35,689 bases of DNA from Gammaproteobacteria bacterium (GTDB lineage Bacteria; Pseudomonadota; Gammaproteobacteria; UBA4575), in contig JABDMD010000091.1 in assembly GCA_013001685.1 (NCBI GenBank), forward strand, positions 1 through 35,689. The letters are read 5' to 3'. A model generated the notes under the pieces. That model made no database searches and was not told the DNA's origin. It worked only from the letters and a program-made list of their open reading frames with translations. The position numbers were made by a program, and so were the translations under genes. Positions 5,718 to 12,349 of the stretch are shown here, one piece after another (position 1 is the first letter of the stretch; each line of letters opens with the position of its first letter).

Positions 5718-6486
5718 GTTTATTTCTTGTATATTTACTTTGGCGTGCGGTTGGCTCTGTGACATTAACAGGAATCATGCGTCTGCGCGGTCTCCAAGGC
5801 TGTGGCGTTGGCGTAAGCGTAAGCTCGCGTTTCTTGGCTACAAGAATTTGCAGCGCACCTAATCGACCCAATCCCACTTTCTCGGCTTTACTTAAAAACT
5901 GCATTCGCTGTTGAAAGTGCATATTCTGTATCGGCGGTTGCAACCCTAAGTGCTCGACGATTAATACCTTAAACCCTAAGAGCGATAACCAATCTTTCAG
6001 TCTTCTTTGTGTATAAAAATGTGCCGCCCAAGGTGCGCGCTGACTACGGATAAAAAGCAGTTTGCTCAAGCCCATCATGCTGAACGGATTAAAACCGATC
6101 ATCACCAAATGACCTTCTGAAATTAGTACACGATGGATCTCACGCAGAACCTGGTGTGGTTTAGGTGAAATATCTAATGTGTGAGGTAAGACAATTAAAT
6201 CTAGGGTATTTTGTGGAAATGGCAAAGCTAATGGATTTGCAGCAACATTACCTTTTTCAGTATTAAAGGTCATGTATATTTTTTGCCCAATTTTACTGCT
6301 AGAAATTAAATCTATCTCATTCGCCAAACCACCAATTTGTAGTGCGTGATAACCAAACAGACTCGGTAGTAGTTTGTCTAATTTAGCTAACAACCCTTTG
6401 TATAAAATTTGTCCTGCAGGAGTTGCATACCAATCCTGTAACTGTTGTGTGTATTTAACAGAATTAAAAAGCACAGATTCTTTCAT
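5698..6486 (-). CDS. SAM-dependent methyltransferase, YafS-like
   Basis: This 262-residue protein has a class I methyltransferase (Methyltransf_11-like) core. Its nucleotide-binding part (YHALQIGG) is weakly conserved, but the later motifs [15 protein letters not shown] and [21 protein letters not shown] are clear. The C-terminus is basic (WRPRRR). The position directly upstream of rnhA and dnaQ and opposite mltD matches that of yafS in E. coli. The substrate is unknown. It starts 147 bases from mltD on the other strand, so the interval holds two divergent promoters. Confidence 0.85.
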
Positions 6487-6633
6487 GTATTAATTCTACC
6501 TTAAAACAGTCGCTTGTAATGCAAACTTTTCATAATAGTTCAAGATCACATTAATCTTTGTAAATATCCTTTTAAATTTAGTTGTTGATCTATTTATATC
6601 GTATCTTTATGCTTCGCGGCCATGGAGGAATGG

Positions 6634-8010
6634 GTGTTAAACAAGAACGTTTTAATGGTATTTTCCTTGGCTTTTTTTGCCATTGGCTGTACACACACTC
6701 CAACAAATGCTGACCTCGACAATTCTGCACATACAGATGCAATAGCGCAAAAAGCGGATTTTGTCAGCCCGCTACTTAGTGATTCTTTTGACAAAGATTA
6801 TTCAGCTATTTCTAACAGCAATCAGCTTATATGGCATCACATTGAAAACAAACTTGAATTAACTAAGTTGTACGATCATCCGCGAGTAGTTCTACAAAAA
6901 CATAAATTTTTAAATGATAGTGACTACTTAGATATAGTTACAAAACGTTCTGAACCTTTCATTCACTTTATATTAAGCGAAATTGAAAACCGTCAAATGC
7001 CTGCTGAATTGGCTATTTTGCCTATTATAGAAAGTGGCTATCACCCAAGGGCTCGTTCACGCGCAAAAGCAGAAGGCCTCTGGCAAATTATGCCCTATAC
7101 AGCCAAAGACTTGGGTCTAAAACGCTCTGTTGGCTATGATGGTCGTCATGATGTTTATGCATCAACCTCTGCAGCACTCGATTATCTTGCACAGATGTAT
7201 AAAAAATTTGATGGTGATTGGTTGCTTGCACTCGCGGCATACAACGCTGGCCCACAACGCGTGAAACGCGCATTAAAAAATGCCAGTGCCCGCGATGAAA
7301 ATGTTTACTGGGGTTTACGCTTACCACGGGAAACACGCGAATACGTTCCAAAGATTTTAGCTTTATGCGCAATTATCAAAGACAAAGAATTTAGCAGCAC
7401 ATTACTACATCCAATTGAAGATGCTCCTTACCTGGCTATTATTGAACTTAGCAAGCGCATTTCACCTGCGAAATTAATTCAAACCGCTGCAGTAAACGAA
7501 AGTGAAATAAAATTACTCAACCCAGCAATACGAAACCTTAGTACGCCGATTCCAGCTGGCTATCATTTAATGGTGCCAAAGCGAGATGCTGAATTCTTAG
7601 CCCTTGCAATTGATAATATGCAAGAAGCACCTCAACCAAGTTGGGCGAAACATAAAATTAATCGTGGTGAATCTCTAAGTAGTATTGCAAGACGCTATGG
7701 CACCACCATCCGCGCATTACGCGAAGCAAATAATATGCATAGCAACACAATTGTTGCCGGACGATCTTTAGTCATACCCTTAAAACAAACACACTCCACC
7801 GAAGTTGTACCAGCGAGCGCTAAAACAAAATCACCAGTGGTTGAAACTATCAGCACAATAGACGTGCCATATATTTATGTTGTAGCAATGGGCGATAGCT
7901 TTTGGAAAATCGCAAATCGCAACAACACTACAGTTCAAAGACTATTTGAAATTAATGGCCGTAGCGCTGACCAGCCACTTCAGCCGGGCGAAACCATCTT
8001 AGTCGATTAG
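6634..8010 (+). CDS. mltD: Membrane-bound lytic murein transglycosylase D
   Basis: MltD cleaves the glycan strands of peptidoglycan in the periplasm. The GTG at 6634 is chosen because GGAGG stands 5 bases before it and it yields a lipoprotein signal ending AIGC (Cys19); an in-frame ATG at 6622 has no ribosome-binding site. The SLT domain covers about residues 115-260, with the catalytic Glu133 in IIESGYHPRA, then GLWQIMP and AYNAGP. Two LysM domains follow (about 344-386 and 413-457), which bind glycan strands. The E. coli neighbour gloB is absent here. Length is 458 residues. Confidence 0.93.
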   Translation: MLNKNVLMVFSLAFFAIGCTHTPTNADLDNSAHTDAIAQKADFVSPLLSDSFDKDYSAISNSNQLIWHHIENKLELTKLYDHPRVVLQKHKFLNDSDYLDIVTKRSEPFIHFILSEIENRQMPAELAILPIIESGYHPRARSRAKAEGLWQIMPYTAKDLGLKRSVGYDGRHDVYASTSAALDYLAQMYKKFDGDWLLALAAYNAGPQRVKRALKNASARDENVYWGLRLPRETREYVPKILALCAIIKDKEFSSTLLHPIEDAPYLAIIELSKRISPAKLIQTAAVNESEIKLLNPAIRNLSTPIPAGYHLMVPKRDAEFLALAIDNMQEAPQPSWAKHKINRGESLSSIARRYGTTIRALREANNMHSNTIVAGRSLVIPLKQTHSTEVVPASAKTKSPVVETISTIDVPYIYVVAMGDSFWKIANRNNTTVQRLFEINGRSADQPLQPGETILVD

Positions 8011-8404
8011 GACTTCTCAGCCTCCCTCTTAAACATAACTTTACGATAGCTCCCGACAGCACCTCACATCTGTCAGAATGCAATATCCATCATATAATTC
8101 ACTGATTTTAATGGCTTACGTCTCTAAAATGAGATGACTCGTCGCACTTCCAGCCAGTGCATATAGTCGTCTTTGCTGTGTCTGTAGTATGCTCCAAAGC
8201 CTTGAAATGCCTATACACTTGCTATGGAAATAACCATTAAACACACTTACCTGAAGACAATATTGGGAGAACCCAATCGTGGTCTCTAAGAGCCTACAAG
8301 CACAGTTCATATTGGCCAGAATTGTCATCGTAATTAACTTCGATAAGACAATGAGATTCAAATGGATGTGTGCATAAGTCTAGCGTCAGACTTGATTAAG
8401 CATC
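8011..8404. other. Intergenic stretch without a convincing gene
   Basis: These 394 bases separate mltD from the kinase operon. Only a poor minus-strand frame (8116-8361) is open, without recognisable protein features. An inverted repeat AAGTCT / AGACTT (8376-8393, 6-base loop) lies 11 bases before the kinase start and could be an operator or a 5' leader hairpin. The kinase operon promoter presumably lies in this stretch, but I could not pick a convincing -35/-10 pair. Confidence 0.4.
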
Positions 8405-9889
8405 ATGCTACATATGCTTATAGAAAATAAAATAAATACTAAATGGTTTGCGTTAAGCCTACTTGCATCAGCGTTAACAGCCGTATTGCTTTGGGTTACA
8501 CAGCCACCGATATTAGTAACCCAAGTTACCGTAATCACTTTAATTTCATTGATCTCACTTAGCTGGGCGTTTACGGCTCCATCCACTAGTAACATTGTAG
8601 ATGAATCTCAAACAGATGCGGCAAACCGATTTGAATCGCGCAACAATCAACGTAGTGTAGGACTTAAACTACAAGGATTAGGACAATTAAACCTAGCGTT
8701 TGAAAAATTTAAACAATGCGCAAAAAACCACGACACAGCAAATTTAGTTTATAACTTAGCAATTGATTTTCAGATCAAAGGTGAACCTGAGAATGCTAGA
8801 AATGCATTTGAATATATTTCTACATTTGAACCCAACTTTAAAGATGTACGCGCACGCATTGCAGCTTTTACTGGCGAAATAATCTCTGAAAGCGATAACT
8901 TTGAGAAAGAAACACAAGAAGCACCTGAACAAGCAGCTATAACTCAACACTCAACGATTATAGAAAAAGCCGTTGCGTCCGGTAAAACCATAATCTTAGC
9001 TCCTGGAGCAGAACCTGAAGAAGAGACCGTTCTTGCTGAAGAATTAAGCGAATATCCAACACTTTATGGTAGCCGCTATAAAATCAAAAGCGTATTAGGT
9101 CAGGGTACTACTGGTGCTGTGTTTAAAGGCAATGACATTGTCACCGATGAAATTATCGCCATTAAGGTACTCAACTTATCTTCTGAGCTTGAAGCCAATC
9201 AATTGGAAGAATATAAATTTCGCTTTCACAGAGAAATCGAAACAGCTGGCAACTTAAACCACCCCAATATAGTAAAGATACTTGATAGTGGCGAAACTGA
9301 CGGTTTTGCGTACATTGCCATGGAATATGTTGATGGCACAAATCTTCGAAGCTATGCTCGTGCAGACCGCCTATTACATCCCAAAACTGTACTAAAAATC
9401 ATTGCCCAGTGCGCAGATGCTCTTGCCTATTCCCACAAGCAAGGTCTTATCCATCGAGACATAAAACCTGCAAATATCATCTATAACCAAGCCGATGATT
9501 ACGTTAAGCTTACAGACTTTGGTATTGCGAGAATTCCAGATTCAACAAGAACGCGCGCTGGATCCATTTTAGGCACACCTTTATATATGTCCCCAGAACA
9601 ACTTGCAGGTGAAAGACTAGATGCTCGTTCAGATCTATATTCATTAGGAGTAACGCTATACCATCTGTTAACCGGTTCACCGCCATTTCGACCAAAAACA
9701 ATGGCAGAGTTAATGCGCTCGATTGCACAAGAACAACATAAAGATATTTCTGAAATAAATCCTGACACACCCTCATGCATTGCTTGGACTGTAAACAAAG
9801 CGCTCGAAAAAGCTCCAGACAAACGCTTTCAGTCTGCAGCAAGCATGGCCAATAAATTACGCGAATGCGAAATGATGCTGGACAGTTAA
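8405..9889 (+). CDS. Membrane-anchored serine/threonine protein kinase with TPR-like region
   Basis: This Hanks-type kinase has 494 residues. Two hydrophobic helices (about 14-31 and 36-56) are followed by a TPR-like helical region (about 84-155), a Glu-rich linker and a C-terminal kinase domain (about 225-490). The kinase looks active: G-loop GQGTTG (232-237), Lys254 in IAIKVL, a C-helix glutamate in FHREIE, the catalytic loop HRDIKPAN (350-357), DFGIAR (371-376) and the activation-loop end GTPLYMSPEQ. The threonines and serine in TRTRAGSILGT are likely autophosphorylation sites. Having membrane helices first and the kinase last is the reverse of PknB-type receptors, so both domains probably face the cytoplasm. 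It is followed after 7 bases by its probable phosphatase. Confidence 0.92.
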   Translation: MLHMLIENKINTKWFALSLLASALTAVLLWVTQPPILVTQVTVITLISLISLSWAFTAPSTSNIVDESQTDAANRFESRNNQRSVGLKLQGLGQLNLAFEKFKQCAKNHDTANLVYNLAIDFQIKGEPENARNAFEYISTFEPNFKDVRARIAAFTGEIISESDNFEKETQEAPEQAAITQHSTIIEKAVASGKTIILAPGAEPEEETVLAEELSEYPTLYGSRYKIKSVLGQGTTGAVFKGNDIVTDEIIAIKVLNLSSELEANQLEEYKFRFHREIETAGNLNHPNIVKILDSGETDGFAYIAMEYVDGTNLRSYARADRLLHPKTVLKIIAQCADALAYSHKQGLIHRDIKPANIIYNQADDYVKLTDFGIARIPDSTRTRAGSILGTPLYMSPEQLAGERLDARSDLYSLGVTLYHLLTGSPPFRPKTMAELMRSIAQEQHKDISEINPDTPSCIAWTVNKALEKAPDKRFQSAASMANKLRECEMMLDS

Positions 9890-9896
9890 CTTAATT

Positions 9897-10724
9897 ATGA
9901 ATCTCAAAGGCATTCTAGATATTGCTGGCCGTTCAAATGTCGGACTAGTTCGCTCGAATAATGAAGACAAAATTGGCGAAGACCAAGAAATAGGTCTAGT
10001 TGTACTTGCCGATGGCATGGGTGGCTATAAAAGTGGCGAAGTCGCAAGTGAAATTGCGGTAAACACTATTCTCGAAGAACTACGTGCAGCAATACCTGAT
10101 CTTCCGCCAGGCGAAATAGACGATCAAACAGGTTACACAAGAGAAAGTTTAGCGGCTAGAAATTCGGTAGTAAAAGCTAACGAAGCTATATTTTCTATGA
10201 GTAGCAACGAAGCACAGTATCGTGGCATGGGAACCACTTTAGTAATGGGAATTTTTTATGATAACCAAATTACTATTGCACATGTTGGCGATTCTAGAAT
10301 GTACCGCTTTCGCGATGGAAAATTACAGCAAATCACTGTAGATCACACATTATTACAAGAGCTCGTTGATCGTGGCTTCTACACACAAGAAGAAGCAAAC
10401 ACATCGTTAAATAAAAACTTAGTGACCCGTGCTCTAGGTATTGAAGGTAGTATTGCAGTAGACATTAAAGAAGATATGGCTATGCCTGGCGACATATATC
10501 TGCTCTGCTCCGATGGTCTGACAGATATGGTCGATGATCAGGAAATTCATGCAACGGTAACCGCCTTTAGAGACAATCTTGATCAGCTAGCTGACAAACT
10601 TGTTGCTATAGCAAATGATAATGGTGGCCGTGACAATATCTCGGTTTTACTAGCACAGCCAAATAAAGAATTCCCTAGCAAGAAAGATTGGAAGTCTAAA
10701 TTCGGTAAATTATTGTCGAAATAG
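9897..10724 (+). CDS. PP2C-family protein serine/threonine phosphatase (Stp/PppA-like)
   Basis: This 275-residue single-domain PPM/PP2C phosphatase would reverse the phosphorylation made by the upstream kinase. Metal-binding and core motifs are all visible: RSNNEDK (19-25), ADGMGGYKSGEVAS (38-51), HVGDSRMYRFRDG (129-141), CSDGLTDM (204-211) and NGGRDNISVLL (242-252). No signal or membrane segment is seen, so it is cytoplasmic. It begins 7 bases after the kinase stop and ends 3 bases before the FHA gene, so all three are almost certainly one transcript. Confidence 0.93.
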   Translation: MNLKGILDIAGRSNVGLVRSNNEDKIGEDQEIGLVVLADGMGGYKSGEVASEIAVNTILEELRAAIPDLPPGEIDDQTGYTRESLAARNSVVKANEAIFSMSSNEAQYRGMGTTLVMGIFYDNQITIAHVGDSRMYRFRDGKLQQITVDHTLLQELVDRGFYTQEEANTSLNKNLVTRALGIEGSIAVDIKEDMAMPGDIYLLCSDGLTDMVDDQEIHATVTAFRDNLDQLADKLVAIANDNGGRDNISVLLAQPNKEFPSKKDWKSKFGKLLSK

Positions 10725-10727
10725 AAT

Positions 10728-11618
10728 ATGAGTACACCAAAACTAATTATAAGTCTGGAAGATAAAGTAGTAGATGAGATTCCTATTGAAAAGGAAATTA
10801 TTACTATTGGTCGACGCACTGATAATGACTTATGTTTAGATAACCTAGCCATCAGTGGTTACCATTCGCAAATCAGCTCTGTATTAGACGATTGCTTTCT
10901 TGAAGATCTAGATAGCACTAATGGCACCTTTGTGAATTCTAAAATCGTTAAGAAACATGCGCTTAAAGATGGCGATATCATTGATATCGGCAACCATCGT
11001 ATTAAATATGTAAACCACTTGGCATCTAGTTCAGCTAACAGTGAATTTGAAAAAACACTGATAATGACTGCAACTTCAGAAAGAAAAAATGCACTTAAAG
11101 ATGAACAAGATGTGCAATCTTTGGAAGATCAGATCAATTCACTTGAAGAAGAGATGTGCGAAAGTACTGACAATGATTTACTAGATTCATCATCACAAAA
11201 AGATGAAGAAACTAATAGCGAAATTAGTAACTCAAGCGATGCTGAAGACAAAGAAAGTAAATTCGTGCAAGTCATAGCATCACAACCAACTACAACATCT
11301 CCATATAGTGATACTGATGACATTCAAATAAATTCACAACCGCCCGCTTCAAGTATTGGACGCATTCAAATACTGAATGGGAAAAACAGTGGCAAAGAAA
11401 TCGCGCTAGATAAATCTTTAACTACTGTAGGAAAACCAGATGTTGCGGTAGTAGGAATTACAAAAAGAAATACTGGTTATTTCATCATGCACATAGATGG
11501 CAATCCAGAAACCCCATCAAAACTTAATGGCGAAGTGATTGCTGCCAAAGCAGAACCTATTGAAGACCATGACATTATTGATGTTGCAGGTATCAAACTT
11601 GAGTTTTTTGTCGAGTAA
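10728..11618 (+). CDS. FHA-domain protein (phosphothreonine reader), tandem arrangement
   Basis: This 296-residue protein starts with a canonical FHA domain (about 5-97) containing IGRRTDND (27-34), ISGYHSQI (42-49) and DSTNGTFVN (62-70), the set that contacts phosphothreonine. A long acidic, Ser/Thr-rich linker (about 105-205) follows and offers many possible phosphorylation sites. The C-terminal part (about 210-296) looks like a second, degenerate FHA fold, with TVGKPDV, YFIMHIDG and KLNGEVI but no clear Ser-x-x-His. It probably links phosphorylated kinase or substrates to a downstream partner not encoded here. It is the last gene of the three-gene operon. Confidence 0.88.
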   Translation: MSTPKLIISLEDKVVDEIPIEKEIITIGRRTDNDLCLDNLAISGYHSQISSVLDDCFLEDLDSTNGTFVNSKIVKKHALKDGDIIDIGNHRIKYVNHLASSSANSEFEKTLIMTATSERKNALKDEQDVQSLEDQINSLEEEMCESTDNDLLDSSSQKDEETNSEISNSSDAEDKESKFVQVIASQPTTTSPYSDTDDIQINSQPPASSIGRIQILNGKNSGKEIALDKSLTTVGKPDVAVVGITKRNTGYFIMHIDGNPETPSKLNGEVIAAKAEPIEDHDIIDVAGIKLEFFVE

Positions 11619-11695
11619 CTATTCTATCTAGACTTCGTAAATTAATTCTTCTATTTCTGAATAACTGCTTTCGGCCAATAGCAGACATTAACTAT

Positions 11696-12349
11696 CTACC
11701 AAAATTTATACCATTGTCCTGAGCGTTTCCGTTTAAATCCAATTAATGGGATTTCCTCAGGATCAATATATGAAGATTCGTCATAGCCTTCAATTTGATA
11801 ACCAAACATGTCCAGCAATGCTGCATCTCCTAAATCAAGCGGGTGAAATGCAAATGGATAAGATTGGTCTTCCTCCCCCGGTTCAAAAACTGGATGGTCA
11901 CCGGACCAATATGGTCTTTCAAATTCTCGTCGTACACCTATGTCTTCGATAACACCGTTATCAGGTGCGAGGCTAAGTGATCTAATTAGCTTTCCATTTT
12001 CCCAAATGGCGTAGGCAAACCAATCAACAACACTATGCATTGCATGTAAATAAACCGTTTTGCCGTAGTTTATGTTAAGGAAACTTGCAGGTAATTTTGA
12101 TGGGTAATCAATACCAAATTCTTTAGCAGCAACAATACTCAATTTAGGAAAACAGCCAATATATATGTCTTTCCCTCTTGGGCAACAGTTATATGCTAGA
12201 TTGCCGTCATCTATCGTTTCAAACCGAGCTGCAGGAAATAGTTGCTGCGCAAATTCAGCAGAATTTTGTCGATCTAGCTTAGGTCTAGACTGTAATATTT
12301 CGGCCGCATTACCGTTTGAATATACGAGCATCCAACATTTTGCTCCCAC
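11696..12349 (-). CDS. DUF6928-like protein, unknown function
   Basis: This 217-residue soluble protein starts with GTG at 12349 behind an AGGGGGAG ribosome-binding site and opens with MGAKCWMLVYSNGNA. That opening, together with the RPKLDR and YIGCFPKLSIVA segments, resembles what I recall of the DUF6928 family; I cannot confirm it by search. The protein is rich in Trp, Tyr and acidic residues (WFAYAIWENGKLIRSLSLAPD, then YPFAFHPLDLGDAAL). There is no signal peptide or membrane segment. It is convergent with the FHA gene and lies downstream of the ABC transporter operon on the same strand after a 109-base gap. Confidence 0.6.
   Translation of the reverse strand: MGAKCWMLVYSNGNAAEILQSRPKLDRQNSAEFAQQLFPAARFETIDDGNLAYNCCPRGKDIYIGCFPKLSIVAAKEFGIDYPSKLPASFLNINYGKTVYLHAMHSVVDWFAYAIWENGKLIRSLSLAPDNGVIEDIGVRREFERPYWSGDHPVFEPGEEDQSYPFAFHPLDLGDAALLDMFGYQIEGYDESSYIDPEEIPLIGFKRKRSGQWYKFW

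What the first reader, a model, noticed from the sequence alone, without database searches (positions are those of the whole stretch)
8405..11618. Self-contained kinase-phosphatase-FHA operon with a TM-TPR-kinase architecture
Three tightly spaced genes (7 and 3 bases apart) encode a writer, an eraser and a reader of Ser/Thr phosphorylation. The kinase has its two membrane helices at the N-terminus, then a TPR-like region, then the kinase, so it has no external sensor domain; the TPR part is a likely input or partner site. Kinase, PP2C and FHA sets are known from type VI secretion loci, but no secretion genes are present here, so this looks like a stand-alone circuit. The acidic Ser/Thr-rich linker of the FHA protein is a likely substrate.
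Basis: partly seen in the sequence, partly recalled or inferred. Interest (0 to 1): 0.55.

Follow-up and report, generated by a model that had tools for sequence, protein, structure and literature searches.

The report
Sensor-stripped bacterial kinase–phosphatase–FHA switch
Three adjacent genes make a membrane-bound protein kinase, the phosphatase that should reverse it and a reader protein; relatives in other bacteria carry the same trio with an outside-facing sensor on the kinase, and this lineage appears to have lost that sensor while keeping the rest of the circuit.

Summary
In detail: three genes, 7 and 3 bases apart, encode an intact Hanks-type kinase, a Stp1-type PP2C and an FHA protein. 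The same ordered trio was found at 78 of 99 related loci, picked by similarity. In 47 of 78 kinases compared a CHASE2 sensor precedes the kinase domain; the window's family has none. The phosphatase tree (midpoint root) nests this family among CHASE2 loci, so the bare N-terminus is best read as derived sensor loss; a second clade shows an apparently independent loss. The FHA protein has a canonical FHA, a variable linker and a degenerate, strongly constrained second FHA-like domain. A Thr motif (FEK-T-φ-φ-I/L) stands just after the first domain in 91 of 99 FHA proteins. The kinase's disordered linker has a T-x-x-L site (T195) also seen in part of the family. This fits a PknG–GarA-like switch: kinase marks its own linker, docks the FHA protein, phosphorylates T110; PP2C resets. 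No T6SS link was found. In Betaproteobacteria the trio often neighbours cyclic-nucleotide and secretion-ATPase genes. Docking, phosphosites, input and output are inferred; nothing was tested biochemically.

The parts
8405..9889 (+). Hanks-type Ser/Thr kinase, 494 aa: 2 TM helices, TPR-like helices, disordered linker, kinase domain
   Evidence: catalytic residues K254, H350-R351-D352, D371-F372-G373 invariant in alignments of 11 and 34 sequences
8444..8566 (+). two hydrophobic helices (residues 14-32, 36-54); they align with the last helices of the CHASE2-3TM module of long homologues
8648..8872 (+). TPR-like helical region (residues 82-156)
   Evidence: AlphaFold2; profile of this region hits most of the kinases listed; weak TPR hits in homologues
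8873..9070 (+). linker between TPR-like part and kinase domain (residues 157-222), largely predicted disordered, with T-phi-phi sites; T195-I-I-L198, T195 codon at 8987-8989
9077..9835 (+). protein kinase domain
9897..10724 (+). PP2C phosphatase, Stp1/IreP type, 275 aa
10728..11618 (+). two-domain FHA protein, 296 aa
10728..11021 (+). FHA1, canonical; R29, S43, H46 and N65 invariant in 56 aligned sequences
11040..11066 (+). conserved Thr motif SEFEKTLIM; T110 at 11055-11057
11349..11615 (+). FHA2, degenerate FHA-like domain

Best explanation
A membrane-tethered Ser/Thr phospho-switch that works like the actinobacterial PknG-GarA/OdhI pair. The kinase autophosphorylates T-x-x-L site(s) in its disordered linker (inferred). 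FHA1 of the partner docks on that phospho-Thr (inferred). The kinase then phosphorylates T110 of the FHA protein, about 14 residues after FHA1 (inferred). The neighbouring PP2C resets both sites (inferred from co-occurrence). Ancestrally a CHASE2 ectodomain gave the input; in this family CHASE2 is absent (shown; that it was lost is inferred from a tree and gene order), so input must come through the TPR-like region, the two membrane helices or expression level (inferred). The output is unknown; homologous loci point to cyclic-nucleotide and pilus/secretion-ATPase control.
For: Kinase-PP2C-FHA in that order at 78 of 99 loci. Thr followed by two hydrophobic residues within 25 residues of FHA1 in 91 of 99 FHA proteins; a stricter motif also in 91 of 99, and in 49 of 54 representatives at 70% identity, +3 = I/L/M in 46 of those 49. 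F107, E108 and T110 are nearly invariant while residues 111-215 hold no such column. FHA1 keeps the binding residues, and its closest solved folds include OdhI, GarA and DgcB FHA, Z 16-18. Kinase linker: T195 in 32 of 34 and L198 in 34 of 34 kinases chosen for a strong TPR-like score; the linker is largely predicted disordered. In PknG, autophosphorylated Thr sites in a disordered segment recruit GarA by its FHA (PMC8546545, abstract and one section read). +3 is a known FHA specificity position, and DgcB's FHA reads its own phospho-tail (PMC6733907, passages read). Low dN/dS in kinase domain, PP2C, TPR-like part and FHA2.
Against: The kinase-linker motif is not universal: in a wider set 41 of 74 linkers hold a T-phi-phi site (shuffles mean 11.9, max 21). 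It is missing in the same-family kinase of G005 (L041), in the nearest CHASE2 kinase G065 (L045), in all Woeseiaceae-type (about 695 aa) and in the Steroidobacteraceae-type short kinases, all of which keep the FHA-protein motif. The 34 kinases were picked in a way that leaves most of these out. The strict FHA motif was written after seeing the data, so its shuffle control is not independent. 20 of 99 loci had no trio kinase upstream, some because of contig ends. FHA2's fold was not tested by structure search. No phosphorylation or binding data exist.
Confidence: 0.48

Rival explanations
1. The FHA protein is mainly a trans adaptor: FHA1 reads phospho-Thr on other targets (cyclase, pilus or secretion ATPase), and the T110 motif makes FHA-FHA chains rather than a cis switch.
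For: Within the next seven ORFs, same strand: CHASE2-cyclase 20, class II phosphodiesterase-like 20, GAF/MshEN ATPase 24, HD-GYP 24 of 62 loci with at least 8 kb downstream (labels by BLAST cluster, one example of each scanned, four more cyclases). A gene matching the trio FHA profile at 198 bits lies in a kinase locus of G062 whose gene sizes resemble the HEAT-kinase/two-T2SSE/cyclase-FHA locus of the window genome; the G062 genes were not scanned.
Against: None of the four gene types lies beside the trio in the window or its genus. In 14 loci, of the kind with RadA and Alr neighbours, only the phosphodiesterase-like gene is near, several genes upstream.
Confidence: 0.28
2. The window's kinase is a relic: after losing its sensor it is constitutively active or on the way to loss, and PP2C plus FHA are what matter.
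For: In G060 only an 89-aa weak kinase match (20 bits) lies beside intact PP2C and FHA genes; 96 of 99 loci have the PP2C but 79 a kinase upstream.
Against: Kinase domain dN/dS 0.02-0.04, TPR-like part 0.06-0.09 within the genus; intact catalytic residues; the window genome and the 3 genus relatives searched all keep it. Some missing kinases are contig ends.
Confidence: 0.15
3. A stray type VI secretion threonine-phosphorylation module (PpkA/PppA/Fha).
For: Same three activities; weak TagH similarity, 41.1 bits.
Against: TagH cut-off 120.25 bits not met; TssC absent from the own genome and from 17 of 18 genomes with the trio, on another contig in the one that has it; no T6SS family among the 10 recurrent neighbour clusters scanned, one example each.
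Confidence: 0.03

Closest known systems
CHASE2-type Ser/Thr kinases (named in the surveys PMC2176072 and PMC2877116, passages read)
   Same: Kinase domain homologous to trio kinases that carry CHASE2 in front of it
   Different: The window kinase has no CHASE2; the passages read speak of CHASE2 kinases in cyanobacteria and mention no PP2C-FHA trio
PknG-GarA/OdhI (Actinobacteria; PMC8546545)
   Same: Kinase with TPR and a disordered Thr-bearing segment, paired with an FHA regulator that carries a phospho-Thr motif; OdhI and GarA are among the closest solved FHA folds
   Different: TPR-like part is N-terminal and membrane-tethered; the Thr motif follows FHA1 instead of preceding it; an extra degenerate FHA2; NCBIfam OdhI cut-off not met (48.6 vs 200 bits)
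DgcB of Bdellovibrio (PMC6733907)
   Same: FHA that reads its own phosphorylated tail, hydrophobic +3 residue
   Different: DgcB is a diguanylate cyclase; here a second FHA-like domain takes the effector's place
T6SS PpkA/PppA/Fha pathway (PMC3953482, abstract and passages read)
   Same: Kinase, phosphatase and FHA reader
   Different: No T6SS nearby; TagH cut-off not met

Membership tests
Hanks-type Ser/Thr kinase | Pfam Pkinase above cut-off with Lys, HRD and DFG residues | tested here: met
Stp1/IreP PP2C | NF033484 above cut-off (230 bits) | tested here: met
   246.6 bits
FHA phospho-Thr reader (FHA1) | Pfam FHA above cut-off with conserved R, S, H, N residues (which residues matter is recalled) | tested here: met
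   binding itself not testable here
FHA domain (FHA2) | Pfam FHA hit for the domain alone | tested here: inconclusive
   17 members scanned, window included: window 0 families, 4 FHA, 7 YscD_cpl at E<=0.05; hhalign with FHA1 prob 87, E 4e-6; no FHA among PDB sequences matched
CHASE2 sensor kinase | CHASE2 domain on the kinase | tested here: not met
   absent in the window kinase, in the upstream gap and in the whole own genome
TPR protein | Pfam TPR above cut-off | tested here: not met
   none in the window protein; sub-cut-off in homologues; the predicted helical hairpins agree with TPR
T6SS threonine-phosphorylation pathway | T6SS genes with the trio; TagH model above cut-off | tested here: not met
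   one T6SS marker (TssC) only
GarA/OdhI | OdhI model above cut-off; ETTS-type motif before the FHA domain | tested here: not met
   48.6 vs 200 bits; Thr motif lies after FHA1
PknG-GarA mechanism | autophosphorylated linker recruits the FHA partner | not testable with these tools
   motif and predicted disorder only

The most novel reading that the evidence does not exclude
A widespread, uncharacterised proteobacterial phospho-relay in which kinase linker and FHA partner carry the same T-x-x-(I/L) code read by one FHA domain, with a pseudo-FHA output domain and a detachable sensor: lineages lost the CHASE2 ectodomain at least twice while keeping the inner circuit, so input can be re-routed through the TPR-like region.
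Probability: 0.33. Interest if true: 0.62.

Novelty: new variant of a known kind. Interest (0 to 1): 0.45.

Why it matters
To my knowledge few Ser/Thr kinase circuits of Beta/Gammaproteobacteria outside T6SS are understood (recalled). This one comes as a portable three-gene unit with one candidate phosphosite conserved in nearly all FHA linkers examined, which makes it directly testable, and natural sensor-less versions give clean comparisons with CHASE2-bearing ones. The pseudo-FHA domain is a candidate output surface.

Tried and rejected
T6SS origin: rejected. Reading the short kinase as the ancestral state: not favoured. The kinase-domain tree puts the family on a long branch next to a midpoint root and does not settle it. 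The PP2C tree, also midpoint-rooted, nests it among CHASE2 loci (98/83; sister G065 97/78, just under the star threshold), and G065 has the same gene order (MT, mltD, kinase, PP2C, FHA, ABC) with an 892-aa CHASE2 kinase. CHASE2 remnant in the 394-base gap upstream: none. Universal fourth partner: none; partners are lineage-specific. FHA2 against solved-structure sequences: no FHA hit. The structure-aligner rows spanned residues 1-102 only, so FHA2's fold was not tested that way. Promoter/terminator scan: no more hits than shuffles. The kinase model was not searched against structures. Of the 14 'no CHASE2' rows, L075, L106 and L112 are cut by contig ends, L103 is split in two ORFs, L050 and L056 are unresolved; only the window family (5 rows) and L118, L128, L133 count as full-length losses, the latter three with an opposing gene 25-97 bases upstream. 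L042 (kinase cut by a contig end) was left out of the kinase tree.

Publication searches, lists capped and most hits unread: 25 papers, 15 listed; 632, 20 listed; CHASE2 with adenylate cyclase and threonine protein kinase: 0; 67, 15 listed; CHASE2 with FHA domain: 3; passages of two read, the third seen as a listing; 1, seen as a listing. 'Not described' holds only for these searches of an open-licence library.

Full report
What is there. The window holds three + strand genes at 8405-9889, 9897-10724 and 10728-11618, with gaps of 7 and 3 bases. They encode a Hanks-type kinase, a Stp1/IreP-type PP2C (246.6 bits against a cut-off of 230) and an FHA protein. Catalytic residues are intact. The kinase starts with two hydrophobic helices, then predicted TPR-like helices to residue 156, then a stretch of low confidence (below 50 at 159-183 and 192-215), then the kinase domain. 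Against three genus relatives dN/dS is 0.02-0.04 for the kinase domain, about 0.02 for the PP2C, 0.06-0.09 for the TPR-like part and 0.03-0.05 for the second FHA-like domain, but 0.20-0.37 for the two linkers. dS is near or above 1 in most comparisons, and without a usable value for FHA1 in two of three, so the ratios are rough.

The trio is widespread. The kinase search matched 64 of 94 genomes, many of the hits being other kinases; a profile of the FHA protein matched 40 of 94 at E<=1e-15, some only through one domain. Of 20 fetched regions and 80 named loci, 99 had the FHA protein; of these 96 had the PP2C, 79 the kinase upstream and 78 all three in the order kinase, PP2C, FHA. These loci were chosen by similarity, so the figures describe linkage among relatives and not frequency in nature. 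Record titles of the named loci mostly give Beta- or Gammaproteobacteria, such as Gallionellaceae, Rhodocyclaceae, Burkholderiales, Woeseiaceae and Steroidobacteraceae; some say only Proteobacteria.

The missing sensor. All 5 long kinases scanned (L045, L046, L047, L053, L055) carry CHASE2 above the Pfam cut-off. By a profile made here, 47 of 78 kinases have CHASE2, 17 a weak or unclear match (the Woeseiaceae-type of about 695 aa) and 14 none; six of those 14 are cut, split or unresolved. The window genome has no CHASE2 at all, nor do 18 relatives of its genus and family, though only part of these have the trio. There is no remnant in the gap upstream of the kinase. The PP2C tree nests the window family among CHASE2-bearing loci (98/83), next to G065 (97/78), and G065 has the same chromosomal surroundings with an 892-aa CHASE2 kinase. 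That tree is midpoint-rooted, and the kinase-domain tree does not resolve the point. A separate clade, L118, L128 and L133, also lacks CHASE2, with an opposing gene 25-97 bases upstream; it lies with CHASE2-bearing Steroidobacteraceae-type loci in both trees (97/87, 100/93). I read this as at least two losses.

The FHA protein. AlphaFold2 gives two confident beta domains (about residues 1-98 and 208-296) and a poorly defined linker. FHA1 matches solved FHA domains, Z up to 18.1, including OdhI, GarA and DgcB, and keeps R29, S43, H46 and N65. FHA2 looks like a degenerate FHA: hhalign against FHA1 gives probability 87, E 4e-6; of 17 members scanned, window included, 7 hit YscD_cpl and 4 FHA weakly, the window's copy nothing. 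The FHA2 profile made here hits 99 of 100 FHA proteins (the window and 99 loci), L049 being the exception. In the variable linker one motif stands out: a Thr followed by two hydrophobic residues within 25 residues of FHA1 in 91 of the 99 (shuffles mean 5.8, max 11). A stricter form, written after seeing the data, is also in 91 of 99, a partly different set, and in 49 of 54 representatives, with I, L or M at +3 in 46 of 49. Five representatives lack the strict form, though L041 has a near match.

The kinase linker. In 34 aligned kinases chosen for a strong TPR-like score (the window and 33 of the 80 named loci), position 195 is Thr in 32 and position 198 Leu in 34. In a wider set 41 of 74 linkers have a T-phi-phi site and 24 have two or more (shuffles mean 11.9 and 0.8). 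The site is missing in G005 of the window's own family, in G065, and in the Woeseiaceae- and Steroidobacteraceae-type kinases. So the linker site is a feature of part of the family, while the FHA site is nearly general.

How it most likely works. The parts match the logic of PknG and GarA/OdhI, where autophosphorylated Thr sites in a disordered kinase segment recruit the FHA regulator (PMC8546545, abstract and one section read), and of DgcB, whose FHA reads its own phosphorylated tail with the +3 residue as a determinant (PMC6733907, passages read). I therefore propose kinase autophosphorylation, FHA1 docking, phosphorylation of T110, cis or trans reading of pT110, and resetting by the PP2C. 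None of these steps is shown here. Input after sensor loss is unknown; the TPR-like region is the best candidate.

Output. Of the 100 loci (window included), 62 have at least 8 kb downstream. Within the next seven ORFs and on the same strand, a CHASE2-cyclase lies in 20, a class II phosphodiesterase-like gene in 20, a GAF/MshEN secretion ATPase in 24 and an HD-GYP gene in 24, any of them in 31 (labels from BLAST clusters, one member each scanned, four more cyclases). By record title 27 of the 31 are Betaproteobacteria and four say only Proteobacteria or Pseudomonadota. In 14 other loci a gene of the phosphodiesterase-like cluster lies several genes upstream. The window has none of the four next to the trio. 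Its genome does have one class III cyclase, fused to an FHA domain, in a locus with a HEAT-repeat kinase and two T2SSE ATPases. This is a lead, not a shown output.

Type VI secretion. Rejected as the home of this trio: TagH cut-off not met, TssC absent from the own genome and from 17 of 18 genomes with the trio. The comparison system is described in PMC3953482 (abstract and passages read).

Verdict. A real, intact, conserved circuit; a sensor-stripped variant of a CHASE2-kinase/PP2C/FHA cassette for which my searches of an open-licence library showed no description among the listed papers. Moderately interesting, mainly because the conserved Thr and the repeated sensor loss make it easy to test.

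Noticed in passing
window 11696-12349 (-): A DUF6928 gene lies between the FHA gene and the ABC transporter genes; G001 and G002 have a different small ORF there.
   Followed up: no
L139 (G000:C32), 5846-11985: HEAT-repeat Ser/Thr kinase, two T2SSE ATPases (PilT/PilU-like by inference) and a class III cyclase fused to an FHA domain close together: a second phosphorylation/cyclic-nucleotide locus in the same genome.
   Followed up: partly
L141 (G000:C7), 6639-7946: Ser/Thr kinase fused to a cyclic-nucleotide-binding domain, next to a Mur ligase gene.
   Followed up: no
L154 (G060), 7815-9611: PP2C and FHA genes intact while only an 89-aa weak kinase match is left upstream.
   Followed up: partly
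L042, L152, L155, L156: In four genomes of the window's family the contig ends inside or next to the trio, so the kinase is cut or missing there.
   Followed up: no
L094, L095, L130: PP2C-FHA followed by phosphodiesterase-like and GAF/MshEN ATPase genes (and HD-GYP in L094 and L130), with no trio kinase detected upstream.
   Followed up: partly
window genome G000:C102:3248-3781: A second PP2C in the genome, outside the trio.
   Followed up: no
L084: Record titled Bordetella parapertussis, but it is a MAG contig and the label looks doubtful.
   Followed up: no
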